From: Corynebacterium occultum
GTDB lineage: Bacteria; Actinomycetota; Actinomycetes; Mycobacteriales; Mycobacteriaceae
Direction: 5' to 3'
DNA length: 64,000 bases
Assembly (NCBI RefSeq): GCF_009734425.1
Contig: NZ_CP046455.1
Coordinates: 2,542,001 to 2,606,000, forward strand
Under the pieces are notes generated by a model, which searched no databases, was not told the origin of the DNA, and saw only the letters and a list, made by a program, of their open reading frames with translations. The translations under genes and the position numbers were made by a program. This document shows positions 51,099 through 62,652 of the stretch, piece after piece (positions within the stretch are counted from its first letter, which is position 1; the number at the start of each line of letters is the position of its first letter).

Positions 51099-52082
51099 AT
51101 GAGCTCCGCACAACCCCCACAGTCCCCGCCCCCTGAGAATCCTGAAGCTGTTGTCCCCGAGGTCGCTGACCGCCCCGTCGGCCATGAGGGAGTCAAGGTC
51201 GAGGTTGTTGAGCAACCCGTCTGGACCACCGGAGCCGGCATGGCTGGCCTGGCCATCTTGGTGATGCTGCTCTGCATAATCGGTATCGCCGGCGGGATCC
51301 TGCTGATCGGCTTCGAGAGGGCCGCCACCGGCGTGGGTGCCGTGATCGCACTCCTCAGCATCATCCTCATCCTGCTGACCACCATGGTCAAGGTGATCTC
51401 CCCCGGACACACCCAGGTGATCCAGTTCTTCGGCCGCTACCTGGGCACCAACCGCCGCACCGGGCTCTCCCTGGTACCGCCGCTGACCACCGCCAAGAAG
51501 GTCAGTGTGAGGGTGCGTAACTTCGAGACCGAGACCATCAAGGTCAATGACTCCAACGGCAACCCGGTGAACATCGGGGCGATCATCGTCTGGCAGATCG
51601 CCGACACCGCCAAGGCCACCTTCGCGGTGGAGGAGGTCGAGGAGTTCATCAGCACCCAGGCTGAATCCGCCCTGCGCCATGTGGCCACCACCCACCCCTA
51701 TGACGGCGGCACCTCCCACCACCCCTCACTCTCCGGGTCCACCGACCTGGTCTCCCGGGAACTGGCGGATGAGGTTGCGGCCCGGGTGAACCTCGCCGGC
51801 CTGGAGATCATCGAGGCCCGCATCGGTTCCCTCTCCTACGCCCCGGAGATCGCCCAGGCCATGCTGCAGCGCCAGCAGGCCGGTGCGATCGTGGATGCCC
51901 GCGAAACCATCGTCGAAGGTGCCGTCACCATGGTTGAATCGGCCCTGGCACAGCTCGAGGCCCGTCAGATCGTGGACCTGGACCCGGAGCGTCGTGCCGC
52001 CATGGTCTCGAACCTGCTGGTGGTGCTCTGCTCCGACACCAATGCCCAGCCCATGATCAACACAGGCAGTCTCTACACCTAA
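51099..52082 (+). CDS. SPFH (stomatin/flotillin-like) membrane protein
   Basis: 327 residues. Two TM helices near residues 47-68 and 74-92 form a hairpin, followed by a band-7 domain (VIQFFGRYLGTNRRTGLSLV, VRNFETETIKVNDSNGNPV, FISTQAESALRHVATTH) and a C-terminal helical, coiled-coil-like region with LQRQQAGAIVDARETIVEGA. The ribosome site is weak (GGAAAGG, 12-18 nt upstream). The ribbon-helix-helix gene follows after 4 nt. SPFH proteins scaffold membrane microdomains; this subgroup is commonly paired with a small Arc-like protein in actinobacteria, function unknown. Confidence 0.85.
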   Translation: MSSAQPPQSPPPENPEAVVPEVADRPVGHEGVKVEVVEQPVWTTGAGMAGLAILVMLLCIIGIAGGILLIGFERAATGVGAVIALLSIILILLTTMVKVISPGHTQVIQFFGRYLGTNRRTGLSLVPPLTTAKKVSVRVRNFETETIKVNDSNGNPVNIGAIIVWQIADTAKATFAVEEVEEFISTQAESALRHVATTHPYDGGTSHHPSLSGSTDLVSRELADEVAARVNLAGLEIIEARIGSLSYAPEIAQAMLQRQQAGAIVDARETIVEGAVTMVESALAQLEARQIVDLDPERRAAMVSNLLVVLCSDTNAQPMINTGSLYT

Positions 52083-52086
52083 GACC

Positions 52087-52311
52087 ATGGCACGCAAAAA
52101 TGTGCCCCTGCGCATCGACCCGAAGGTCCATGAGGCGATCGCACGGTGGGCAAATGACGAAAGCCGCAGCATCAACGCCCAGATTGAGGTGATGCTGCGG
52201 GATGGTCTGCGTCGGGCCGGTCGCCTACCCCGGGATGCCGGGGAGATCCCCCGCCGGGGTAGACCACCGGCGGTGGTGGCCGAGGACGTCGATAAGCAGC
52301 CAGGGGGTTAG
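52087..52311 (+). CDS. Ribbon-helix-helix (Arc-like) DNA-binding protein
   Basis: 74 residues. The RHH fold is visible at residues 3-45: VPLRIDPKVHEAIARWANDE, then RSINAQIEVMLRDGLRRAGR, the strand residues contacting DNA being in NVPLRID. The C-terminal 28 residues are Pro/Arg-rich. It starts 4 nt after the SPFH stop, so it is coupled, and its own stop overlaps the stop of the convergent FecCD permease gene. An autoregulator of the operon through the two palindromes upstream is the simplest reading. Confidence 0.88.
   Translation: MARKNVPLRIDPKVHEAIARWANDESRSINAQIEVMLRDGLRRAGRLPRDAGEIPRRGRPPAVVAEDVDKQPGG
52284..52297 (+). repeat. Recurring 14-mer, copy 9 (13/14)
   Basis: GGACGTCGATAAGC near the 3' end of the ribbon-helix-helix gene (Asp-Val-Asp-Lys-Gln). 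Confidence 0.55.
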
Positions 52312-53369
52312 AAACCCTTGCGCCATTCCCGGGCCAGCAGCCATATCAGGTAGATCCCGCCCAGGCTGCCGGTGATCACGCCGACCGGCAACTGGGTCGG
52401 GGCGAAGAGACGCTGCGCCAGGATGTCGGAGACCAACACCAGCAGACCACCCATCAGGGCAGCCGCACCGACACCGACCCCACCATGACGAGTCAGACGG
52501 CGCGCCAGCTGCGGGGCGGCCAGCGCGACGAAGGCGATCGGGCCGGCCACCGCCACCGCCAGGGACACCAGGGCCACACCCACCATCACGATCTGGCTGC
52601 GACGCCGCTCCACCTTCACCCCCAGCGCGGTGGCCAGATCATCGCCGCTGAGCATCACATTCAGGGGGCGGGAAAGCGTCAACGCGATCGGCAGCAGCAC
52701 CGCCACACAGATCAACGCCACCCCAGCGGTGCTCCAGGTCATCGCATTGAAGGAACCCGCCTGCCACTGCGTCGCAGTCTGCGCGGCCTCCAGGGAAGCA
52801 CGCACCACCAGCAGGGAGTTCAGCCCCTGCAGCACCGAAGCGACACCGATGCCCACCAGCACCAGGCGGATACCGTTGAGCCCACCCCGCCAGGCGAGGG
52901 CGTAGACGATGCATGCGGTGAGAAAACCACCGGCCAGGGCACCGACGGCAATGGCCAGGGGGCCACCACCGAAAATGATGATCTGCAGCAGCGCGCCGGT
53001 GGCCGCACCCACGGTGAAACCGATGACATCAGGGCTGCCCAGCGGATTGGCGGAAAGAGACTGGAAAAGTGCACCCGAAGCACCCAGGGCGGCGCCCACC
53101 AGAACTGCCGCCACAATGCGCGGAGCACGCTGCTGTTGCACGAAATAGCTGGCCAGGGGATCATTACCCATCCCAAAGAGCGCGGCCACGGCCTCACCGA
53201 TACTCAAGCGGTAGTCCCCCAGCAACAGGGCGATGCCCGCGGCTGACAGGATCAACAGCACCATCAGCAGACACACCTGCACCGTCCGCTTCGGCAGGCG
53301 CAGCACCATGCCGGCCAGGGTGTAGAGGCGGTGATCCGGGGAGGCGGGGGTTCTGGTTTGGTGGATCAC
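52308..53369 (-). CDS. FecCD-family ABC permease (FepG-like)
   Basis: 353 residues, about 9-10 TM helices, of the siderophore/heme/B12 permease family. Landmarks are RAPRIVAAVLVGAALGASGA, FQSLSANPLGSPDVIGFTVG, GPIAFVALAAPQLARRLTRH (the ATPase-coupling region), and the C-terminal PVGVITGSLGGIYLIWLL. ATG 53369 overlaps the stop of the preceding permease (ATGA), so both are translated together. Last gene of the surface/uptake cluster; it runs into the convergent RHH gene with a 4 bp overlap. No ATPase gene follows. Confidence 0.92.
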   Translation of the reverse strand: MIHQTRTPASPDHRLYTLAGMVLRLPKRTVQVCLLMVLLILSAAGIALLLGDYRLSIGEAVAALFGMGNDPLASYFVQQQRAPRIVAAVLVGAALGASGALFQSLSANPLGSPDVIGFTVGAATGALLQIIIFGGGPLAIAVGALAGGFLTACIVYALAWRGGLNGIRLVLVGIGVASVLQGLNSLLVVRASLEAAQTATQWQAGSFNAMTWSTAGVALICVAVLLPIALTLSRPLNVMLSGDDLATALGVKVERRRSQIVMVGVALVSLAVAVAGPIAFVALAAPQLARRLTRHGGVGVGAAALMGGLLVLVSDILAQRLFAPTQLPVGVITGSLGGIYLIWLLAREWRKGF

Positions 53370-54439
53370 AGTGCCTCCAGTCGACGGCGACGGACAATGA
53401 CGATGAAGAAGGGGCCGCCGAGAATCGCGCTCATGATTCCCACCGCGACCTCCGAGGGGGCGAGCACCACCCGGGCCAGCACATCAGCCAGGAGCATCAC
53501 CGCAGGGGCGGCCATGATGCACCAGGGCAAGGCCAGCCGCTGATCCGGACCGCAGATGGCCCGTGCCAGGTAGGGCACCGCTAACCCGATGAACATCACC
53601 GGGCCGATGCCTGCGGTGGCGGCACCCGCCAGCAGGGTCACCGCAACCACCACCACTGCACGGGTCAGATTCACCCGAACCCCGAGGCTACGAGCCGTAT
53701 CCAGGCCCAGTGCCATGGCATTCAGCGCCGGGGTGACCAGCACCGCCAGCGCCAGCCCGGCCACGATGAAGGGGGCCACGGCCGTGATGATGTCATAGCC
53801 CCGGGCCTCGGCGGAACCGGCCGCCCAGAAACGGAACTCATTGAAGGCATCCTGGTTGGAGAGGATGACCGTCTGAACCAGGGCACCCATCGCCATGCTG
53901 ATCGCCACACCCGCCAGTGCCAGTCGCTCCGGGGAAGCAGCTGCCCGGCCGGTGCCGCCGAGGACATAAACCCCCACAGCGGCGATCGCCGCACCACCGA
54001 AGGCGAACCAGAGGTAGAACCACACCGAGCTCAGGCCGAAGACGGCCACCGCCAGCACCACCGCCAGCGAGGCGCCGGCGTTGATTCCCAGGATGCCGGG
54101 ATCCGCCAGGGGGTTACGGGTCAGCGACTGGATCAGGCTGCCGGCCACACCCAGCGCGGCCCCGACCAGGATCAGCAGGATGGTGCGCGGCACCCGCTGC
54201 TCATGCACCACCACCGAGTTGAAGCTCTCATCGGGATGCTGCAGGAGCTGAACCACTTCCCCGACGGGGATCGGGTTGGAGCCGACCAACAGGGAGGCTG
54301 CGATCAGAGCCATCAGCACCAGGAGGGCGGTGATCAACTTGAGGGCGCCCTTCAGCTGGCCTCGGGCCCGGCTGAAGGTGGGTTCCGGGGCTGCTTCCGG
54401 ATTCGGTTGCGGTCTCGGTGGGGTTAGTGCGGTGCTCAT
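53366..54439 (-). CDS. FecCD-family ABC permease (FepD-like)
   Basis: 357 residues, about 9-10 TM helices. RVPRTILLILVGAALGVAGS, IQSLTRNPLADPGILGINAG, GPVMFIGLAVPYLARAICGP and the C-terminal PSEVAVGIMSAILGGPFFIV define the family. It pairs as a heterodimer with the permease encoded after it (overlap ATGA). It lies 53 nt after a membrane-anchored surface protein gene of the same cluster. Substrate is likely a ferric siderophore or a related iron complex, judged by the iron boxes upstream of the cluster. Confidence 0.92.
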   Translation of the reverse strand: MSTALTPPRPQPNPEAAPEPTFSRARGQLKGALKLITALLVLMALIAASLLVGSNPIPVGEVVQLLQHPDESFNSVVVHEQRVPRTILLILVGAALGVAGSLIQSLTRNPLADPGILGINAGASLAVVLAVAVFGLSSVWFYLWFAFGGAAIAAVGVYVLGGTGRAAASPERLALAGVAISMAMGALVQTVILSNQDAFNEFRFWAAGSAEARGYDIITAVAPFIVAGLALAVLVTPALNAMALGLDTARSLGVRVNLTRAVVVVAVTLLAGAATAGIGPVMFIGLAVPYLARAICGPDQRLALPWCIMAAPAVMLLADVLARVVLAPSEVAVGIMSAILGGPFFIVIVRRRRLEAL

Positions 54440-54492
54440 CGTGGGGTGTTCATCTCCGGTGTCATCATGATCCTGCTCAGCCCTGGGGGCTG

Positions 54493-55644
54493 CTACCTCT
54501 GGTCGTCCAGGGTGGGGTGGACAGCGGTGTCCTGCCAGTCATCTGCGGTGTGGTTGCTGTTCCGGGTGTTTCCCTGAGCTGCCTGGGTGGCATAGGCCGG
54601 ACGACGCTGCACGAAGAGCCAGGTGTTGATGGCCGTCATGCCCACCAGCAGGATTGCCCCGCCGATGAAGAGGCCGATCCAGGGAATCGAATTGGACTGG
54701 CTCTGGGAGGCGGTGGTGAGGGTTTCCCCGTTCACCGTGGTGCCAGCGTCGGCGCCGGTTCCGGTTTGGGCATCATCGAGAACTCCCCCGAAAATTCCCT
54801 CATCAGCGCTGACGGCCTGACCGTCGGGGCCGATCGCGGCATCGGCCGCGGTGTCGCTGGTGTTATCCGTGCCGGTATTGGCGGCATTCGCGGTGACTGC
54901 GGTGTTACCGGCGTTGGCGGCATTGGCGGCGTTGGCGGCACCAGCTGCAGCGGCATTCGCCGGAGCGGCCACGGCCTGGTTGACTGCCTGCCCACCGGTG
55001 TTTCCGGTGGCGGCCCGTGCCACGGTGGTGGCGGCCGTGCCACCACGGGTGTTGCTCCCGGCGCTGTTGGCGCGGGCCGCACTGGTGGCGGCAGCTGCGG
55101 GGGTCGCCGCAGCCTGGGTGGTGTTGTTTCGCACCGGGGCCGCAGCCTGGGTGGTTTCCTGCTGCTGCTTCTTCTTCACGCTGAAGGTGGAGTTACCCTT
55201 GTTGGAGTAACCGAGCACACCACCACCGGCGGCATCGTCCATGGGCTCACTGGCCAGGTAACGCAACCAGTGGGATCCTTCGTCCATGTCGCAGGGGATC
55301 TGCACCGAACCGGAGGCCCGGCCCGAGGAGTCGACGCGCTGGGTGGCCACCACGCCGGCACCCTGGATCGACTGGTCGCCATAGCCCTGACCATCATCGA
55401 TCTTGACGTAGACCACTTCACCGGCGGGGAAACCCGTCACCTGGAAGGTAAGGGTCTCGCAGGGGGCAAGGGTCTTCGGGGACACCGAGGAGGAGGTACC
55501 CGGGGTGTCGGCGGTGTTGGCGCCACTCGGTGGGAGGGCGGTGACCGGCGGGACCTGAAGCAGGCTGATGGCCGCAACAGCTCCGGCTGCCAGAACAGCC
55601 AGAGCGTGACGACGCCGCGATCGGGGGGATGCCTTGAGACTCAT
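54493..55644 (-). CDS. Membrane-anchored surface protein with one Ig-like module
   Basis: 383 residues. A basic N-terminus and signal peptide end around PPVTALP. Residues about 50-155 form a compact module (LAPCETLTFQVTGFPAGEVV, VYVKIDDGQGYGDQ, and IPCDMDEGSHWLRYLASEP, two Cys that may pair). A low-complexity Ala/Asn/Thr/Gly spacer of about 150 residues follows, then one TM helix (IPWIGLFIGGAILLVGMTAI) and a short charged tail. Its gene begins 19 nt after the 717-residue gene and precedes the two permeases, so it belongs to that operon. The KIDDG module also appears in the other surface proteins here. Confidence 0.85.
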   Translation of the reverse strand: MSLKASPRSRRRHALAVLAAGAVAAISLLQVPPVTALPPSGANTADTPGTSSSVSPKTLAPCETLTFQVTGFPAGEVVYVKIDDGQGYGDQSIQGAGVVATQRVDSSGRASGSVQIPCDMDEGSHWLRYLASEPMDDAAGGGVLGYSNKGNSTFSVKKKQQQETTQAAAPVRNNTTQAAATPAAAATSAARANSAGSNTRGGTAATTVARAATGNTGGQAVNQAVAAPANAAAAGAANAANAANAGNTAVTANAANTGTDNTSDTAADAAIGPDGQAVSADEGIFGGVLDDAQTGTGADAGTTVNGETLTTASQSQSNSIPWIGLFIGGAILLVGMTAINTWLFVQRRPAYATQAAQGNTRNSNHTADDWQDTAVHPTLDDQR

Positions 55645-55663
55645 GTTTCTTGTCCTTTAGATC

Positions 55664-57817
55664 TTAACTGCGGGGACTACGGTGGGCGGCCCAGAGGGAG
55701 AGGGCGTAGAACACGGGGATCAGAGCACCAACCAGGATCATCCACCAGTCCGTGGCTCCGACCGCACTGGCGGTGGTGACCACGTTCTGCCGGTTCGAGG
55801 CCTCGGTGAGGACCGGGACATCAGCTAGTTCAAGCTGGTCCGCGCCCAGGGTGATCTCCACCCAGCCGAGAATCTCACCGTCTTCCCCCAGAACCGCGAC
55901 CTTGTGCACGCCATTGGGGATGGTGCTGGTGTCCAGTCGGACAGTGTTGTTCTCATCCACCTGCACCCAACCCACCGGAACCACATTCGGGGCGTAGACG
56001 TGGAGGTAGACCCAGTCCCCGGCGGCGACACCTGACAGCTCCATGCTCAGCAGCTCCCCCTCCAGGGATCCCGTGACCTCACCGGCATTGTCCTGGTTGA
56101 GGCCAGCGATATCGGGCACCGGGGCCGCTGGATCGAAGTCCGGGGCCGGCTTGGATTCCACCCCGGCAACCACAGAATCCTCAGCGTCACTGGTGGTCAC
56201 AGCGACGACCGGGGCGTTGGGGGTGACGCTGCCACCGCCGGTGGCCACCGGGAAACTGGCCACACCGGGCGCGGCCACAGAAAAGCCTGCCCCACCAGAG
56301 GTGGAGTCCATGGCGGTGGTGAGGAGGGTCTCTTCAAGCGGGAAGTCCGCAACGATGAGACTGTCATCCTCGGTGCCGTCCTCGCTGGCGGACTGGGGGT
56401 TCCGGCCGGTTCGGTAGTTGCTGATGTCGGTGTCCAACTGCTCCATCGCCACCACAGCGGATTCCAGCTCAGAGACAATGCCCATCAGCTCGCTGGTGAC
56501 GGTCTCGGAGGTGCCGTCATCGGTGGTTCCGTCATCGGTGCCGGAACCCTCCACCTCATACCAGGCCCAGCCGAGCAGCTCATTGCGGCTGTCCTGGTTG
56601 CCGGACTGCACCACCATCTTGTACTCGGCCGCAGCCAGGTTGATGCCCTTCAAGGAGGCGTTGAATTTTCCTTCCCCGTTCACCTGGAACCAGGTTCCCT
56701 GCCAGGGCAGGACCGGGGTGCCGGCCGGGTTGTAGGCGTTGAGGTAAACCCAGTCACCTTCCTTGGTACCGGGAACCGTGACCTCCAGTCCCCCACTCTT
56801 CTCCCTGATCTTGATGCCGTTCTTGTTGGCGTTCTTCAGGTCCTCCGAGTACTGCAGCGGATCCGGGAAGCCATTGGGCTCATAGTCACCGACCACGAAC
56901 TTGAAGGACTCACCACGGCCCGGGAGGGTGGCCACCGGGTCATTTTCCTGGAGGGAGCCACTGAGCAGACGGATGGTGTGCTCACCACTGGTGAAGGCCG
57001 GCACCGAACCGCTGGGACCGGTGGTGCCATCCGGCAGCTGCAGGTCATAGGTCCAGTCACCGGTGGCATCATCAGCCTGGACAATGGCGAAGATGGTCCG
57101 GTTCGCATGCACCGTGTCATCTGCGCGGCTCAGCGAGCCCTCATCGATCTTGATTCCGATCAGGGCCCCACCGCTGAGCGAGTTGCACCAGCCGGTGCCG
57201 GTGATCCGCAGTCTGCCGGAGGAATCCGGTTCGGCAGCGACCGTGGCGGCGGGACGCGGGGTGGAGGCGACACATTCCACATCCTCCCCGGCGGCTTCCC
57301 GGTAGGCGACACCACCGACGGTCAGGGGCTTGGAGATGATGGTGCGCTGAACATCCCCGGCCACCAGTCCGCTGCTGAGGTCAACGATCAACTTCTGGCC
57401 GGCAGTCAGCTCCGGCAGATCAGTGGTGATCTCGAAGTCGCCATCCTGGTCAGCCTGGAACACCTCCCAGAGGGTGGCGTCCGGCGCGCCGGAGGTGGGG
57501 TGTGTGTTGATTTCACCCCCGGTCCGGGTGTACTGCTGGGGAAGCCCATTGGCCTCGTAGTTGAGTTTGATCCGAACCGTGGAGCCACCGCTTTCGGCGG
57601 TCCATCCGGAACCGCTGATCCGCAGTGTGCCCCTGCTGTCCACGTCCTGCTGGATCTTCAGGGTGGCACCCTCGGTGCTGATCTCCTGGACATCAGCGGC
57701 GGAGACCGTCTGTTGGGCGAAGGCCGGTGCCGGTGCTGCGGTGCAGGTGAAGGCCAGAGCTGCAACCAGGGCGATACCGGAGGGAAGGACTCGGGGAAGG
57801 GTGAAAATGAAGTTCAT
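55664..57817 (-). CDS. Large membrane-anchored surface protein with repeated modules
   Basis: 717 residues. Signal peptide to about AFAQQ (residue 36), C-terminal TM helix (MILVGALIPVFYALSLWAA) and a basic tail RSPRS. Four repeated units: two of type A (TLRISGSGWTAESGGSTVRI near 60, and RLRITGTGWCNSLSGGALIG near 205) and two of type B (GDWVYLNAYNPAGTPV...GWAWYEV near 360, and GDWVYLHVYAPNVVPVGWVQ...LGWVEI near 615). A Thr/Asp linker lies between. Type A resembles the module in the two other surface proteins of the cluster. AGGAA 5 nt upstream of the ATG, 8 nt after the binding-protein gene. No HtaA-type heme (CR) domain is seen. Binding partner unknown. Confidence 0.88.
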   Translation of the reverse strand: MNFIFTLPRVLPSGIALVAALAFTCTAAPAPAFAQQTVSAADVQEISTEGATLKIQQDVDSRGTLRISGSGWTAESGGSTVRIKLNYEANGLPQQYTRTGGEINTHPTSGAPDATLWEVFQADQDGDFEITTDLPELTAGQKLIVDLSSGLVAGDVQRTIISKPLTVGGVAYREAAGEDVECVASTPRPAATVAAEPDSSGRLRITGTGWCNSLSGGALIGIKIDEGSLSRADDTVHANRTIFAIVQADDATGDWTYDLQLPDGTTGPSGSVPAFTSGEHTIRLLSGSLQENDPVATLPGRGESFKFVVGDYEPNGFPDPLQYSEDLKNANKNGIKIREKSGGLEVTVPGTKEGDWVYLNAYNPAGTPVLPWQGTWFQVNGEGKFNASLKGINLAAAEYKMVVQSGNQDSRNELLGWAWYEVEGSGTDDGTTDDGTSETVTSELMGIVSELESAVVAMEQLDTDISNYRTGRNPQSASEDGTEDDSLIVADFPLEETLLTTAMDSTSGGAGFSVAAPGVASFPVATGGGSVTPNAPVVAVTTSDAEDSVVAGVESKPAPDFDPAAPVPDIAGLNQDNAGEVTGSLEGELLSMELSGVAAGDWVYLHVYAPNVVPVGWVQVDENNTVRLDTSTIPNGVHKVAVLGEDGEILGWVEITLGADQLELADVPVLTEASNRQNVVTTASAVGATDWWMILVGALIPVFYALSLWAAHRSPRS

Positions 57818-57825
57818 TGCATTTC

Positions 57826-58812
57826 CTAGGTCAGTGCCGCGAGAATGTCATCGACGATTTTGTTCATCAGCAGCGGACCACCGGTGGAGGTCCAGGCGGA
57901 GCCGTCAACCGGAATGATGTGGTTCTGCTGGTAGGCGTTCAGGCTGGTGAAGCCGGGAACACTGCGCGCCTGGGCGATGGATTCCCGGGCGGCGGACTCA
58001 TCCACGGTGCCTCCGGCATCCGGGTTACTTACACTGGATCCACCGAGGGTGCCGAAGAAGAGGAAGTCCGCGTCAATCTCCTGCAGATTCTCCGCGGAGA
58101 CCGGTTCGGAGTGGCCTCGGCCCTCCCGGTTCTGGTTCTCGGGACGCTGCAGTCCGACATCGCTCAGGGCCCGACCTGCCGGAAGTTCCTTGAGGATCAT
58201 CGCGGCGGTGTTACCCTGCCAGCGCACCACCGAGAAGGTCTGATCTGCGTAGCTGTTGAGCTTCTCGCGGGCGTCATTGGTCTTGGCCTCATAGTCAGCG
58301 AGGATCTGCTCACCCTCCGCAACCTTGTTCACCGCCTCGGCGACGAAACCCAGGTTGGCCTTCCAGTCCCCACCGGCGTAACCGGTGTAGACGGTCGGGG
58401 CGATCTGGCGCAGCGCCTCGATCACCGGCGGGTTGTTGTTGATGCTGGTGCCGTCAACCAGGATGAGGTCCGGGGAGATCTCACCGATGGCCTCGAAGTT
58501 GGGCTGCGCCACGGTACCCAGGATCGGGATGTCCCCGGCCTGTTCCGCCAGGTAGTTGGGGACGCTGCTCTGCCCGCGGCCCGAGACGGTGCCTGCCGGC
58601 ACCAGGCCCAGTGCCAGGACGGCATCAAGGGTGGGTTCGGAGAGGGTGATGACCCGTTCCGGCTCCACCGGCACCTCAACCTCGGTGCCTTCAATGTCGG
58701 TGATGGTGCGGGTGGGGCCTTCGGCCTGCCCGGGGGCGGTGGAGCAGCCGGCAAGGCCGAGGGTGGCCACCAGCAGTAGCGCCACCAGACGAAGAATGGA
58801 CCGGGGGTTCAT
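57826..58812 (-). CDS. Siderophore-type ABC substrate-binding lipoprotein
   Basis: 328 residues from ATG 58812, with AGAGGAT 8 nt upstream; the frame upstream to 59040 is not used. Signal peptide with lipobox LGLAGC. The fold is that of cluster A-II (FhuD/FepB-like) binding proteins: EVEVPVEPERVITLSEPTLD, AVLALGLVPAGTVSGRG, SPDLILVDGTS in the first lobe, a long helix, and FSVVRWQGN, VDGSAWTSTGGPLLMNKIVD in the second. It is the receptor for the two FecCD permeases encoded downstream, with two surface proteins in between. Confidence 0.92.
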   Translation of the reverse strand: MNPRSILRLVALLLVATLGLAGCSTAPGQAEGPTRTITDIEGTEVEVPVEPERVITLSEPTLDAVLALGLVPAGTVSGRGQSSVPNYLAEQAGDIPILGTVAQPNFEAIGEISPDLILVDGTSINNNPPVIEALRQIAPTVYTGYAGGDWKANLGFVAEAVNKVAEGEQILADYEAKTNDAREKLNSYADQTFSVVRWQGNTAAMILKELPAGRALSDVGLQRPENQNREGRGHSEPVSAENLQEIDADFLFFGTLGGSSVSNPDAGGTVDESAARESIAQARSVPGFTSLNAYQQNHIIPVDGSAWTSTGGPLLMNKIVDDILAALT

Positions 58813-59160
58813 GAGCGGATCCTCTCGGGGGGGAGTTCGGATATGGACGGGGATGAAATTTTCTGGGGGAAATCTGACCGGGCATGGTGTCCCGGAGGGT
58901 GGGGCGTGATCTGGGGGTTCGCCTCTCCCCTGGGGATGCGGGCAGGGGCGTTCTCCCCTGTTTCCCCCGCTAAAGGCAATAAGAAAGACTTTGGGAATAC
59001 TTTTAGATAAAGAGCCCACTCCGGCCCACAACCCCGACACCGGACATCCGCTTATCGGATGCCCCGTGCCGGGGTGTGGTCAGGGAATTTCAGCTCCAGC
59101 CGTGGCAGGTGCCAGGGCTTTGTGCTGGCCCAGGTTGTCCTGGAATCAGGTGTCCCGGAA
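58813..59160. other. Intergenic region between the beta-propeller and binding-protein genes
   Basis: About 350 bp, so the binding-protein gene may have its own promoter. The part around 58980-59010 is AT-rich with a TAGATA-like stretch. I find no good iron box here. A degenerate copy of the recurring oligomer (CCGATAAGC) is at about 59049 on the minus strand. Confidence 0.5.
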
Positions 59161-61047
59161 CTAGATGTTCAGGGCGCCGCGCAGCCAGGAGGGCAGCACA
59201 TTGGCGCTGATCAGACCGGTGTTGATCAGGGCGCCGAAGATACCGGCTGCGGCACCGACGATGCCCAGGGCTGCCAGCAGTCCGCCGAGTGCGCCACCGA
59301 ATTCGGTGCCCTCGGAGGAGAGCTCGTTGCCCGGTGCAATCGGCTCGACCGGTGCAGCCTTCGGGGTGTAGCGGTACAGGTCGTCGAACTTGGTGTCGTT
59401 CTCGCCCTGGTTACCGGCCTTGTTGACCATGTAGACGGAGCCGCTCGGGCCCACAGCGACGTGGTTGGCGTTCGTGCCGGCCGGCAGGTTCGCAACTTCC
59501 TCGAAGGTGTTGGCGTCGATGACGGTGGTGGTGCCGCCGCCGCGGTTGGAGACGTAGATGTAGCCGTAGGTCGGGTCGTACTCGGCGTTCAGCGCGCCAT
59601 CACCGGTCGGCAGGTCAGCGACAAGCTCACCGGAGTCGACGTTGACTGCCACGACGTTGTTGGTGCCCTGGTTGGCCACCCACAGGTTGCGGTTCTTCGG
59701 GTCGAAGGCGACACCGGAGGCGGTGACGGCATTGTCCCCGAGCTCGTAGATGGTGACCTTGTTGCCGTCGCGGACGTCAATCTTGGCGGCCAGCGGGTTG
59801 GCGAAGCTGGAGGTGAAGAGTTCACCGGTCGCAGCGTTGAAGTCCAGGGACATGGTCACGCCGACGTTGTGCTTGTCATCGCTGACCACAATGTCTTCCT
59901 TGCGCTCCAGGGTGTTGCCGTCGAAGACCGCAATGACAGCGGAATCAGCGTTACCACGAGCCGCGGAGGAAACGTAGACCAGGTTGGTCTGCGGATCGAC
60001 GATGATGTCGCGGGTGTGGTCGATGATGCCGGCGTCGAACTGCTTGACCAGGGAAAGGTCATCCTGCTTGTACACGGCGACGGTGTTCTGGCGGGTGTTG
60101 GTCACCCAGACATAACCGAGCTCGTTGTCCAGGCCGATGCCGTAGACACCGAAGACACCCTTTTCCTCGTTGCCTTCTTCAACGGCACCCGGGAGGATCT
60201 CCTTCTCGATCTCAAGGGTCTCAGCATCCATCTTCACCAGGGAAGACTGCTTGATCGGGGGGCGACCAACCGAGGCAGCGGCGAAGAGCTTGCCGGTCTC
60301 CGGGTTGATGGCGGTCTGGTACATGCCGTTGGGGACGCTGACCCGCTGGATGTCGAAGAGGTTCTCATTGCGGAGGGAGTTGTCGACACCAGACGGTTCC
60401 TCTTCAGGGGTACCCGTGGTCGGCGAAGTGGTGGTGGTGGGGGCGGGCTCGGTGATAACCGGGACAACCGGTGAAGAGGTGGTGGGGGCGGCCGGAGCGG
60501 CGATGGTGCCGCAGGAGCCGTCTGCCGTGCCGTTCTGCACCAGGAAGTAGACGGTCTTGGAGGCGCCGGCGCCACCGTCGTTACCCGCCAGCAGACGGAT
60601 GTTGTGCTGACCGTTGGCAGCGATCTCGGGCAGCTTGAGCTTGATCTCGAAGGTGCCGTCAGCCTTGACCGGGGTATCGACATAAGCGGTACCGGAAGCG
60701 TCGACACCGTTGGAGGTGTCCGCGTCGGAACCGGTCTGATCCTTGGGGAACTGGATGGCACCATCATCGATCTTGAAGGCCAGGGAGCCATTCTTCGGGC
60801 GAACGTCGAAACCGGTGCCGACGAGGGTGATGATGTCACCGCCCTTGTAGTTGCGCTCTGGTTCCTTCAGGGTGATGGTGCCGTTGCCGTTACCCTGGTT
60901 GCGGGCCTCGAAGGTGGAGCACTCCTGGGTCTGGGCGAAGGCGGTACCGGTACCTGCCACGGTGACACCGGCGGTGCTCACTGCCACGGCCATCAGACCG
61001 ACCAGGGCACGCTGCACGGCGTGGTTCTTGAGATTCTGCTGCTTCAT
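59161..61047 (-). CDS. YVTN-type beta-propeller surface protein with C-terminal anchor
   Basis: 628 residues. Signal peptide ends at TAFAQT (about residue 39). An N-terminal module (DIITLVGTGFDVRPKNGSLA, FKIDDGAI, HNIRLLAGNDG; residues about 65-175) resembles the modules of the two other surface proteins. A Thr/Pro linker precedes a seven-bladed-type propeller (residues about 235-555) with repeats such as GYVWVTNTRQNTVAVYKQDD, NLWVANQGTNNVVAVNVDSG and GYIYVSNRGGGTTTVIDANT. The C-terminus has a hydrophobic anchor (GALGGLLAALGIVGAAAGIF) and ends SWLRGALNI. First gene of the cluster, with AGGAG upstream and two iron boxes 91-218 bp before the ATG. Confidence 0.9.
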   Translation of the reverse strand: MKQQNLKNHAVQRALVGLMAVAVSTAGVTVAGTGTAFAQTQECSTFEARNQGNGNGTITLKEPERNYKGGDIITLVGTGFDVRPKNGSLAFKIDDGAIQFPKDQTGSDADTSNGVDASGTAYVDTPVKADGTFEIKLKLPEIAANGQHNIRLLAGNDGGAGASKTVYFLVQNGTADGSCGTIAAPAAPTTSSPVVPVITEPAPTTTTSPTTGTPEEEPSGVDNSLRNENLFDIQRVSVPNGMYQTAINPETGKLFAAASVGRPPIKQSSLVKMDAETLEIEKEILPGAVEEGNEEKGVFGVYGIGLDNELGYVWVTNTRQNTVAVYKQDDLSLVKQFDAGIIDHTRDIIVDPQTNLVYVSSAARGNADSAVIAVFDGNTLERKEDIVVSDDKHNVGVTMSLDFNAATGELFTSSFANPLAAKIDVRDGNKVTIYELGDNAVTASGVAFDPKNRNLWVANQGTNNVVAVNVDSGELVADLPTGDGALNAEYDPTYGYIYVSNRGGGTTTVIDANTFEEVANLPAGTNANHVAVGPSGSVYMVNKAGNQGENDTKFDDLYRYTPKAAPVEPIAPGNELSSEGTEFGGALGGLLAALGIVGAAAGIFGALINTGLISANVLPSWLRGALNI

Positions 61048-61137
61048 GAGTTTTAAGGCTCCTAATAAGTGAACTCGGATCTTTGTCGCTGACCTGCATC
61101 AACCTCCTGAGAGCAGTGAAGGCCAGCCGATTGAGGC

Positions 61138-61156
61138 AAAGCTTAGGCTGTCCTTA
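61138..61156. promoter_or_regulatory. DtxR/IdeR-type iron box 1
   Basis: AAAGCTTAGGCTGTCCTTA matches TWAGGTWAGSCTWACCTWA at 15 of 19 positions, with the central TTAGGCT intact. Confidence 0.6.
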
Positions 61157-61246
61157 TTCAAACCAAAACTGCCCTCAAATCCTGAGACACCCCCCGGAAA
61201 GGCTCCACCTATAGCAAAAAGGACATCCCGATGACCGAAACGCTAC

Positions 61247-61265
61247 AAAGGTAAGCCTTAGCTTT
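61247..61265. promoter_or_regulatory. DtxR/IdeR-type iron box 2
   Basis: AAAGGTAAGCCTTAGCTTT matches the consensus at 16 of 19 positions. With box 1 it suggests repression of the cluster by the iron-loaded regulator. Confidence 0.68.
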
Positions 61266-61476: not shown

Positions 61477-62652
61477 TTAACCGAGCAGCCAGTCATTGGG
61501 AGAGAAGAGCTCGAAGCGCACGGACTTCGGCGCCTTCTCCGCCGGGAGCTTGGACAGGTCCTCACGGACGGACTTCAGGAAGCTGTTGCCACCACAGAGG
61601 TAGACATCCGCACCCTTGAGGTCATGCTTGTTCAGGTCGAGACGCTCACCGGACTCACGGTAGGTGGCCTCCGCCCTGACCTTGGGCAGACGCTCCAGCA
61701 GGGCGGTGGTCTGGCCACGCTGGGCATGGTTGCCCTCAGACTCATCAGCATGCAGGTAGATGGCCTCACGCTGCGCGCCGACGCGTGCCATGTAGGCGAG
61801 CATGCCGACCATCGGGGTGGAGCCGATACCGGAGGAGACCAGCACCAGCGGAGCATCACCCTCCTCGAGCACCAGATCACCGGCGGCCAGGGTGGCCTGG
61901 ATAGTGTCGCCGACCTCAACCTTCTCGCGCAGGTGGGTGGACACCTCACCCTCAGTCTCCACGGCAATGGTGTACTGGCCCGGCTGCTGGGCGATAATCG
62001 AGTACTGGCGCAGCTGACGGGCACCGTCCTCAAGCACCACACCGATGGAGGTGTACTGGCCCGGCAGAGGCTTGGTCAGGTCGCCTTCCAGGGTGTAACT
62101 GGTGACGTTGCCTGAGAGAACCTCCTTCTCGATGACCTTGACCTCACGGAAGACATCACCCGGTTTGACATTGTCGGAGGCGTAGAGCTTCTTCTCGAAG
62201 GTGATCAGGACATCCGCCATGATCCAGTAGACCTGACTCCAGGCTGCGGCGACATCCTCGGTGACCACGTCAGCACCGAGCACCTCGACGATGGCGGCGA
62301 AGAGATTCTCATAGACGACCTGGTACTGATCCTCAGTGATGCCCAGGGAGACATGCTTGTGGCCGATGCGGGCCAGCAGGTCGATCGGGTCCGGGGCGTT
62401 GGGGTCGACCAGCATGGAGGCGAAGGTGGCCACGGAGGCGGCCAGCGCCTTCTGCTGCTCGCCGGACTTCTGGTTACCGCGGTTGAAGGTGTTGCGCAGC
62501 AGCTCGGGATGGTTGCCGAACATGGTGCGGTAGAAGGTCTGGGCGATCTCGCCGATGTTCGCACCGACCGCTGGCAGGGTGGCCTTGATGATCTCCTCAT
62601 GCTCCGGAGTGAGCTTGCGGTCACGGGCGGTGGGCTGGTCGGTGATGAACAT
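61477..62652 (-). CDS. hmp: Flavohemoglobin (nitric oxide dioxygenase)
   Basis: Converts NO and O2 to nitrate with NAD(P)H. 391 residues. Globin domain 1 to about 140 (ATLPAVGANIGEIAQTFYRT at the B helix, IGHKHVSLGI with the proximal His), FAD domain with RQLRQYSII (FAD-binding RxYS), NAD(P) domain with SSGIGSTPMVGML and the C-terminal CGGNSFLKSVRED, ending in FSPNDW. Upstream AGGAGG is near ATG 62652. Separated from the surface cluster by a terminator, so it is a distinct unit, divergent from the PhoX gene. Confidence 0.96.
   Translation of the reverse strand: MFITDQPTARDRKLTPEHEEIIKATLPAVGANIGEIAQTFYRTMFGNHPELLRNTFNRGNQKSGEQQKALAASVATFASMLVDPNAPDPIDLLARIGHKHVSLGITEDQYQVVYENLFAAIVEVLGADVVTEDVAAAWSQVYWIMADVLITFEKKLYASDNVKPGDVFREVKVIEKEVLSGNVTSYTLEGDLTKPLPGQYTSIGVVLEDGARQLRQYSIIAQQPGQYTIAVETEGEVSTHLREKVEVGDTIQATLAAGDLVLEEGDAPLVLVSSGIGSTPMVGMLAYMARVGAQREAIYLHADESEGNHAQRGQTTALLERLPKVRAEATYRESGERLDLNKHDLKGADVYLCGGNSFLKSVREDLSKLPAEKAPKSVRFELFSPNDWLLG

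What the first reader, a model, noticed from the sequence alone, without database searches (positions are those of the whole stretch)
52308..61265. Iron-box-controlled surface/uptake cluster without ATPase: candidate undescribed system
Seen: in transcription order a beta-propeller surface protein, a FhuD-like binding lipoprotein, two membrane-anchored surface proteins and two FecCD permeases, all on the minus strand, with two DtxR/IdeR-like boxes (15/19 and 16/19 matches) ahead of the first gene. No ABC ATPase lies in or next to the set. Established: FecCD permeases normally sit with a FhuC-type ATPase, and DtxR represses iron uptake genes in corynebacteria. Inference: the surface proteins pass an iron-containing ligand (host or environmental) through the cell envelope to the binding lipoprotein, and the permeases borrow an ATPase from another locus. 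Heme binding through HtaA-type domains is unlikely because that domain is not visible.
Basis: partly seen in the sequence, partly recalled or inferred. Interest (0 to 1): 0.85.

Follow-up and report, generated by a model that had tools for sequence, protein, structure and literature searches.

The report
Catecholate siderophore importer with surface proteins
A corynebacterium carries an iron-regulated gene set, found in about a tenth of the genus and mostly in genomes that also have genes for making catechol iron-scavengers, in which three related surface proteins of unknown function probably help feed the iron-loaded scavenger into a membrane pump whose engine gene is missing in this genome but present in its relatives.

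Summary
On the minus strand at 52308-61047 lie a YncE-like propeller protein, a siderophore-binding lipoprotein, two membrane-anchored surface proteins (S1, S2) and two FecCD permeases. The only two DtxR-like boxes (15/19, 16/19) in the 64 kb precede the first gene. No ATPase gene is nearby.

"Without ATPase" does not define the system. The cassette occurs in 26 further Corynebacterium genomes, each with an ATPase gene (fecE) after fecD, and in three other actinobacterial genomes, also with fecE. The window genome lacks it, and no remnant was found.

Propeller genes occur in 26 of the 27 genomes with S2 and in none of 215 others. The cassette associates with catecholate siderophore synthesis: entB in 19/27 against 28/215 genomes, entE in 20/27 against 29/215, linked within about 25 kb in eight. 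The window genome has entA, entB, entC, entE, an EntF-like NRPS and two enterochelin-esterase-like genes elsewhere.

Best reading: a ferric-catecholate importer whose three surface proteins share one undescribed Ig-like domain and pass ligand to the binding protein, energised here by a borrowed FecE, as FhuC energises IsdF. Ligand, relay and borrowing are inferred.

The parts
59161..61047 (-). Propeller surface protein, 628 aa: signal-like N-terminus (by eye), N-terminal Ig-like domain, YncE-like propeller (about 230-562), C-terminal hydrophobic helix 590-609
   Evidence: Model mean pLDDT 82.0; Foldseek top hit E. coli YncE 3vgz, E 1.7e-20, TMt 0.83-0.84; PDB sequence search 1l0q 2.9e-10 and YncE 3vgz 5.2e-10; family in 26 of 242 Corynebacterium genomes
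57826..58812 (-). Siderophore-binding lipoprotein (FecB/YfiY/SirA type), 328 aa if read from ATG 58812 (the mechanical ORF starts at GTG 59040)
   Evidence: Peripla_BP_2 E 3.5e-18; profile best PDB matches YfiY 3tny 5.3e-42, SirA 7.2e-27, FecB 2.8e-23; 105 of 106 near-invariant cassette residues kept (25 other sequences)
55664..57817 (-). S1, membrane-anchored multi-domain beta-sandwich surface protein, 717 aa; C-terminal helix 689-711
   Evidence: Model mean pLDDT 79.1, pTM 0.55; no Pfam or NCBIfam family at E up to 0.1; homologues named Corynebacterium, Micropruina, Nocardioides, Microbacterium, Aeromicrobium, Rothia aeria
54493..55644 (-). S2, surface protein, 383 aa: one Ig-like domain, low-complexity linker, hydrophobic helix, short tail
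   Evidence: No Pfam family at E up to 0.1; two NCBIfam hits are low-complexity matches far below cut-off; homologous to domains of S1 and the propeller protein; in 27 of 242 Corynebacterium genomes
53366..54439 (-). FecC-type permease; best NCBIfam model PRK10441, Fe(3+)-siderophore permease (FepD by recall)
   Evidence: PF01032 E 1.9e-88; PRK10441 301.7 bits, cut-off 428; 102 of 106 near-invariant residues kept; AxxxG in the coupling helix
52308..53369 (-). FecD-type permease; best NCBIfam model PRK10440, iron-enterobactin permease
   Evidence: PF01032 E 1.1e-76; PRK10440 333.6 bits, cut-off 422; 84 of 87 near-invariant residues kept; AxxxG in the coupling helix
61247..61265 (.). DtxR-like box, 16/19
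61138..61156 (.). DtxR-like box, 15/19
52306..52307 (.). Place where 26 of 26 other Corynebacterium cassettes have fecE after fecD; here fecD converges on a small + strand ORF ending at 52305

Best explanation
It is an iron-repressed importer for a ferric catecholate (probably enterobactin-like) siderophore. Shown by sequence: a conserved cassette propeller-SBP-S1-S2-FecC-FecD(-FecE); boxes for a DtxR-type repressor; strong co-occurrence and, in eight genomes, linkage with 2,3-dihydroxybenzoate siderophore synthesis genes; such genes at other loci of this genome; three surface proteins that share one homologous Ig-like domain; fecE missing in this genome only, with the permeases conserved. Inferred: the surface proteins, anchored in the membrane and reaching outward, capture the ferric siderophore and hand it through their shared domains to the lipoprotein; FecCD import it; an enterochelin-esterase-like enzyme releases the iron. 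With no own ATPase the permeases are driven by a FecE made at another locus, most likely the one at C1:2375874-2376638, the nearest relative of the cassette FecEs in this genome.
For: fecE in 26 of 26 other Corynebacterium genomes with S2 and in 3 of 3 other actinobacterial genomes found. Propeller in 26 of the 27 S2 genomes and 0 of the other 215. entB-type gene in 19/27 cassette genomes against 28/215 others (Fisher p 7e-10), entE-type in 20/27 against 29/215 (p 1e-10); the 14 best-scoring EntE matches (55-100% identity, the query's own genome among them) all lie in cassette genomes; entE and entB lie within about 25 kb of S2 in 8 of the 21 cassette genomes that have either. Own genome: isochorismate synthase (over the TIGR00543 cut-off), isochorismatase (PF00857 2.5e-37), 2,3-dihydro-DHB dehydrogenase and enterochelin-esterase-like genes at C1:~496-500k with boxes of 17/19 and 16/19; a DHB-adenylate ligase and an EntF-like NRPS at C1:~2.253-2.2585M; a second esterase-like gene beside the 2376k FecE. 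The FecD scores best with the iron-enterobactin permease model. Shared surface domain: hhalign probabilities 95.7, 97.5, 98.4%. dN/dS against C. lemuris: FecC 0.285/1.02, FecD 0.24/0.92, SBP 0.205/0.81. Precedent: IsdF energised by FhuC (PMC10147376; abstract and one Results section read).
Against: The best-scoring solved relatives of the SBP (YfiY, SirA, FecB) are not catecholate binders as far as I recall; enterochelin binders score lower. Six of 27 cassette genomes have neither entB nor entE at the thresholds used. In the window genome the ent genes are 340 kb or more from the cassette. The Fisher tests ignore relatedness, and both queries come from a cassette genome. Most ent-type model hits in the own genome fall below the curated cut-offs. 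The 2376k FecE belongs to another FecCD set, and the clade supports are moderate. Pairwise dN/dS averages over both lineages, so recent relaxation after the loss of fecE is not excluded; window FecC and FecD keep 0.962 and 0.966 of near-invariant residues, a little below the leave-one-out medians of 0.991 and 0.988 though above the minima of 0.935 and 0.930. The surface proteins evolve faster. No surface protein is shown to bind anything.
Confidence: 0.67

Rival explanations
1. Heme importer of the Isd or Hta/Cht type.
For: Surface proteins with a shared domain, binding lipoprotein and permeases without an ATPase resemble Isd; the SBP has a weak IsdE match (12.1 bits, cut-off 298.65, E 0.078).
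Against: No HtaA or NEAT match in Pfam at E up to 0.1; the permease models that score best are siderophore permeases; association with catecholate synthesis.
Confidence: 0.06
2. Importer for a non-catecholate or foreign siderophore (citrate, hydroxamate or carboxylate type); the catecholate genes are only a frequent companion.
For: Nearest solved SBP relatives are YfiY and SirA; six cassette genomes lack entB and entE; cassette unlinked to ent genes in the window genome.
Against: Linkage in eight genomes and 14 of 14 for the best EntE matches; FecD best with the enterobactin permease model.
Confidence: 0.18
3. A relic: with fecE lost, the cassette no longer transports and is decaying.
For: fecE missing in this genome only; FecC and FecD keep slightly fewer near-invariant residues than the median relative.
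Against: All six frames open; near-invariant residues kept FecC 102/106, FecD 84/87, SBP 105/106, S1 25/26, S2 25/25; low pairwise dN/dS; boxes present.
Confidence: 0.08
4. The surface proteins are adhesins or envelope-structure proteins that merely share the operon.
For: S1 is made of common beta-sandwich modules; its top Foldseek hit is a biofilm-protein domain, with low TM-scores of 0.12-0.14.
Against: Co-occurrence of S2 and propeller in the same genomes and recurring order SBP-S1-S2-FecC.
Confidence: 0.1

Closest known systems
Enterobactin importer FepB-FepD-FepG-FepC with Fes esterase (names recalled)
   Same: SBP, two FecCD permeases, of which FecD scores best with the iron-enterobactin permease model; FecE in relatives, whose C. 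lemuris copy scores nearly equally with FecE and the iron-enterobactin ATPase (310.8 and 310.6 bits); esterase-like and ent genes in the genome
   Different: No TonB-type receptor in the cassette; three surface proteins; SBP not FepB-like by best match; ATPase missing here
Staphylococcal Isd heme system with FhuC
   Same: Surface proteins and a permease energised by a general ATPase, FhuC (PMC10147376, abstract and section 6 read)
   Different: Different domain, different probable ligand, two permeases, DtxR-type boxes; no LPXTG motif in the three surface proteins
C. diphtheriae ciuABCDE corynebactin system
   Same: DtxR-regulated siderophore SBP, two permeases and ATPase (PMC13001254, passages read)
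   Different: No surface proteins listed with it in the passages read
C. diphtheriae znu cluster with ZnuE, ZnuF, ZnuG
   Same: ABC metal importer encoded with membrane and cell-wall proteins that act in uptake (PMC12445094, abstract and section list read)
   Different: Zinc; other proteins; ZnuG has a sortase signal
E. coli YncE
   Same: Fold of the propeller domain
   Different: The cassette protein adds an Ig-like domain and a C-terminal helix; function not transferred

Membership tests
FecCD-family siderophore ABC importer | FecCD permease pair | tested here: met
   PF01032 E 1.9e-88 and 1.1e-76
FecCD-family siderophore ABC importer | Peripla_BP_2 binding lipoprotein | tested here: met
   E 3.5e-18; lipobox by eye
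FecCD-family siderophore ABC importer | Cognate ATPase encoded with it | tested here: not met
   None here; present in 26 of 26 other Corynebacterium cassettes. So the window copy is an incomplete member; the relatives' cassettes are full members
FecCD-family siderophore ABC importer | Transports ferric siderophore | not testable with these tools
   needs an uptake assay
Enterobactin importer (Fep) | Permeases reach the curated Fep model cut-offs | tested here: not met
   333.6 of 422 and 301.7 of 428 bits; best of the models listed but below the cut-offs
Hta/Cht heme uptake of corynebacteria | HtaA domain in the surface proteins | tested here: not met
   No match at E up to 0.1
Isd | NEAT domain in the surface proteins | tested here: not met
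   No match at E up to 0.1
Isd | Permease without own ATPase, served by a general ATPase | tested here: inconclusive
   Own ATPase absent; candidate at C1:2376k; AxxxG kept, but also in the other FecCD sets printed; interaction untested
DtxR regulon | DtxR-like site upstream | tested here: met
   15/19 and 16/19 against the degenerate consensus, recurrent in relatives; 13 and 12 against the strict one; binding untested

The most novel reading that the evidence does not exclude
The three surface proteins form an Isd-like relay for ferric catecholate siderophores in Gram-positive actinobacteria, built on one new homologous Ig-like domain (K-I-D-[DE]-G once in each of the three window proteins, and a later [LI]-R-x-L, preceded by H in S1 and S2) that binds the negatively charged ferric catecholate; and in this lineage the importer has given up its own ATPase for a general one, as IsdF relies on FhuC in staphylococci.
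Probability: 0.33. Interest if true: 0.78.

Novelty: new variant of a known kind. Interest (0 to 1): 0.6.

Why it matters
How ferric siderophores cross the thick, mycolate-covered envelope of corynebacteria to reach the binding lipoprotein is, to my knowledge, unsettled. A conserved set of three surface proteins that travels with catecholate siderophore genes gives definite genes to test. The same set in Aeromicrobium-like genomes, which to my knowledge lack a mycolate layer, would suggest that the proteins serve the wall or the membrane face rather than an outer membrane. The copy without an ATPase is a natural case for testing ATPase sharing outside the staphylococci.

Tried and rejected
"System without ATPase" as a kind: rejected, since fecE follows fecD in all 26 other Corynebacterium cassettes. 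Relocated cassette fecE: looked for; the best ATPase of the genome (59% identity to the C. lemuris one, next 34%) sits in an SBP-FecC-FecD-FecE-esterase set and in the tree falls with two G031 FecEs (91/93) outside the clade of the 26 Corynebacterium cassette FecEs (91/97, moderate), so it looks like a sister type, not the moved gene. The FecEs of the three other actinobacterial cassettes fall outside that clade too, among long branches, so the tree does not settle their place. Second ATPase-less FecCD pair at C1:600975-602914: tested whether its loss is derived; 20 other genomes hold an SBP match of at most 55% identity; 8 of 20 have FecCD-type permeases and an ATPase beside it, all with the SBP on the other strand, 12 of 20 show no permease, and none has the same arrangement: inconclusive. 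Heme: no HtaA or NEAT match. Function from fold for S1: only generic beta-sandwich matches. Neocarzinostatin, the name one source gives an S2 relative (P0308): no Pfam support. Plasmid look-up to name the organism: no match. Not counted as linkage: weak EntC-like matches (28-29%) near four cassettes (L093, L094, L095, L102), a 25% Fes-like match about 18 kb from the G092 cassette, and Fes-like matches of 28-30% near others. Literature: searches (open-access PMC library only) listed no paper that I could recognise as describing this cassette; I judged by titles and abstract starts, and read passages of five papers and outlines or a section of two. A 2026 survey of siderophore-binding proteins in Gram-positive genera has none of the words surface, propeller, cell wall, accessory or ATPase in its main text (PMC13293324, word search). 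Subscription papers were not searchable.
Full report
What is there. Searches confirm six genes on the minus strand: a propeller protein (59161-61047), a binding lipoprotein (57826-58812), two anchored surface proteins S1 (55664-57817) and S2 (54493-55644) and two FecCD permeases (53366-54439, 52308-53369). From the lipoprotein gene to fecD the gaps are 8, 19, 53 and -4 bases; the propeller gene stands 348 bases ahead of the lipoprotein gene. A 15-pair terminator-like stem follows hmp at 61454-61419, which suggests that the cassette is transcribed apart from hmp. No sigma-70-like promoter was found by the simple scan.

The boxes. Against the degenerate DtxR consensus (recalled) the window has exactly two sites of 14/19 or more, both in this intergenic region: 61138 (15) and 61247 (16). 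Against a stricter consensus they are weak (13 and 12). The cross-species test is stronger: 15 of 23 upstream regions, the window's included, carry a site of 15 or more, against 2.3% of 4000 random pieces of the same loci; 2 of 23 have none of 14 or more. Positions in relatives were taken from open-frame starts, so distances are approximate, and some of the 23 are close relatives of each other.

Distribution. A genus-wide scan (242 genomes) found the propeller family in 26 and S2 in 27; all 26 are among the 27, and the odd one (G218) is a genome of 53% completeness. Context of the 26 other genomes (fetched; annotated): S2-FecC-FecD-FecE in 26 of 26. One (G221) is cut by the end of the fetched stretch inside FecE; in G218 the stretch begins inside S1; in G077 the propeller gene lies elsewhere. 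Some genomes have two or three propeller genes near each other. A class-wide scan of S1 (394 genomes) gave 3 others: G492 and G621, whose contigs match in length (exactly, and within 100 bases) contigs that bear Aeromicrobium proteins, and G607; all three have SBP, S1, S2, FecC, FecD and FecE, and the first two a propeller gene in the opposite direction. Protein searches place S1 relatives in Micropruina, Nocardioides, Microbacterium and Rothia aeria too, without context.

The missing ATPase. C. lemuris has propeller-SBP-S1-S2-FecC-FecD-FecE-hmp, then a band-7 gene and lysS. The window has hmp-propeller-SBP-S1-S2-FecC-FecD, then the band-7 gene and lysS: hmp is on the other side of the cassette and fecE is gone, without remnant. 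How the change came about is not known. The genome has four FecCD pairs: this one; one at C1:2376k with SBP, FecE and an enterochelin-esterase-like gene; one at C1:764k with its own ATPase; and one at C1:601k that also lacks an ATPase. The best match to the C. lemuris cassette FecE is the 2376k one (59%; next 34%). In the tree it lies outside the clade of 26 cassette FecEs, with two FecEs of G031 (moderate supports). A DtxR-like box (15/19) lies about 70 bases upstream of that operon's SBP gene. Both window permeases keep the AxxxG pattern that matters for FhuC contact in S. aureus IsdF; the other own FecCD sequences printed have it too, so it does not single out one partner.

Still functional? 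Against C. lemuris dN/dS is about 0.28 (FecC), 0.26 (FecD), 0.25 (SBP), beside 0.27 for Hmp and 0.18 for LysS; the surface proteins evolve faster (propeller 0.53, S1 0.62, S2 0.42; NG86). These pairwise values average over both lineages. Near-invariant residues of the other cassettes are kept: FecC 102/106, FecD 84/87, SBP 105/106, S1 25/26, S2 25/25; for FecC and FecD this is slightly below the leave-one-out median of the relatives and above their minimum.

The ligand. EntB-type isochorismatase (E to 1e-40) occurs in 19 of 27 cassette genomes and 28 of 215 others; EntE-type ligase (E to 1e-120) in 20 of 27 and 29 of 215; six cassette genomes have neither. The 14 best-scoring EntE matches are all in cassette genomes; the query itself comes from one (G031). 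In eight genomes (G031, G154, G176, G007, G104, G113, G208, G074) entE and entB lie within about 25 kb of S2 (distances for 17 genomes; in the four other cassette genomes with either gene they are on different contigs). In the window genome the pathway is split. At C1:~496-500k lie an enterochelin-esterase-like gene (PRK10439, 158 bits, cut-off 222), an isochorismate synthase (TIGR00543, 229.3 bits, over its cut-off 224.75; best model DhbC below its own), an isochorismatase (PF00857, E 2.5e-37) and a 2,3-dihydro-DHB dehydrogenase (TIGR04316, 263.6, cut-off 300), 31-55% identical to the G031 genes, with boxes of 17/19 and 16/19. At ~2.253-2.2585M lie a DHB-adenylate ligase (TIGR02275, 639.4, cut-off 723.55) and a 1344-aa NRPS whose best model is EntF (587.8, cut-off 2400). 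So the pathway is present by best match, mostly below curated cut-offs. Against a catecholate: the SBP profile scores best with YfiY and SirA, and enterochelin binders come lower. C. variabile was reported to have an entA-entC1-entB-fes cluster (PMC3219685, passages); entF-type genes were noted in respiratory corynebacteria (PMC12188740, passages); 45 Rothia genomes, R. aeria among them, were reported to hold a catechol-siderophore-like cluster (PMC7190385, passages), which fits the R. aeria S1 relatives.

The surface proteins. The S1 model (mean pLDDT 79.1) shows beta-sandwich domains at about 37-170, 185-310, 335-425 and 580-660, a helix at 441-470, a low-confidence stretch and a C-terminal helix at 689-711. 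Foldseek and VIA-align give only generic beta-sandwich matches. The propeller protein has an Ig-like N-domain, a YncE-like propeller and a C-terminal helix. Profile comparison joins the S2 domain with domains of S1 (95.7%) and of the propeller protein (97.5%), and S1 with the propeller N-domain (98.4%); sequence identity is low, 5% for S2 with S1. K-I-D-[DE]-G stands at propeller 92, S1 223 and S2 81, and a later [LI]-R-x-L recurs, preceded by H in S1 and S2; in other propeller proteins the first motif is looser. That such residues bind ferric catecholate is inference. No LPXTG motif is present; one LPPSG occurs near the N-terminus of S2.

How it probably works. Under low iron the repressor leaves the boxes; the cell makes a catecholate siderophore; the ferric form is caught by the surface proteins, passed to the lipoprotein and imported by FecCD, driven by a FecE from another locus; an esterase opens it. 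Shown by sequence: gene set, boxes, co-occurrence, conservation. Inferred: binding, relay, direction, partner ATPase.

What it is not. It meets the FecCD importer features except the encoded ATPase; it does not reach the Fep model cut-offs; it lacks HtaA and NEAT matches (membership table). It works like Fep in its core and, if the relay is real, like Isd at the surface. I recognised no description of the cassette in the nine paper searches named in Tried and rejected; the library holds open-access papers only.

Noticed in passing
L046 (G000 C1:600955-604039): A second FecCD pair with its SBP and no ATPase in the same genome, between a MarR-like gene and a 738-aa ORF (isocitrate-dehydrogenase-like by eye); whether the loss is derived could not be shown.
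   Followed up: partly
window 51099-52082: An SPFH/band-7 protein lies convergent to the cassette here and near it in C. lemuris, with no match in the other fetched cassette stretches; in S. aureus the flotillin FloA is needed for Isd-dependent growth (PMC10147376 abstract).
   Followed up: partly
window 61477-62652 and L005 16250-17467: hmp lies upstream of the cassette here and downstream of it in C. lemuris, on the same strand as the cassette: a local rearrangement seen together with the loss of fecE.
   Followed up: partly
G154 C1:2244498-2281500 (L084, L148, L156): One genome carries a cassette plus a second SBP-S1-S2 set and several propeller-like ORFs beside entA-B-C-E, a Fes-like gene and an NRPS.
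   Followed up: no
L006, L080, L082: An EntF-like NRPS gene converges on the cassette fecE in three related genomes.
   Followed up: no
L090, L092, L100, L101: Two or three propeller genes stand next to each other on the SBP side of the cassette.
   Followed up: no
window about 52087-52305 (+): A small ribbon-helix-helix-like ORF (reading by eye) between the band-7 gene and fecD; in the C. lemuris stretch the band-7 gene ends 70 bases from hmp, with no room for it.
   Followed up: no
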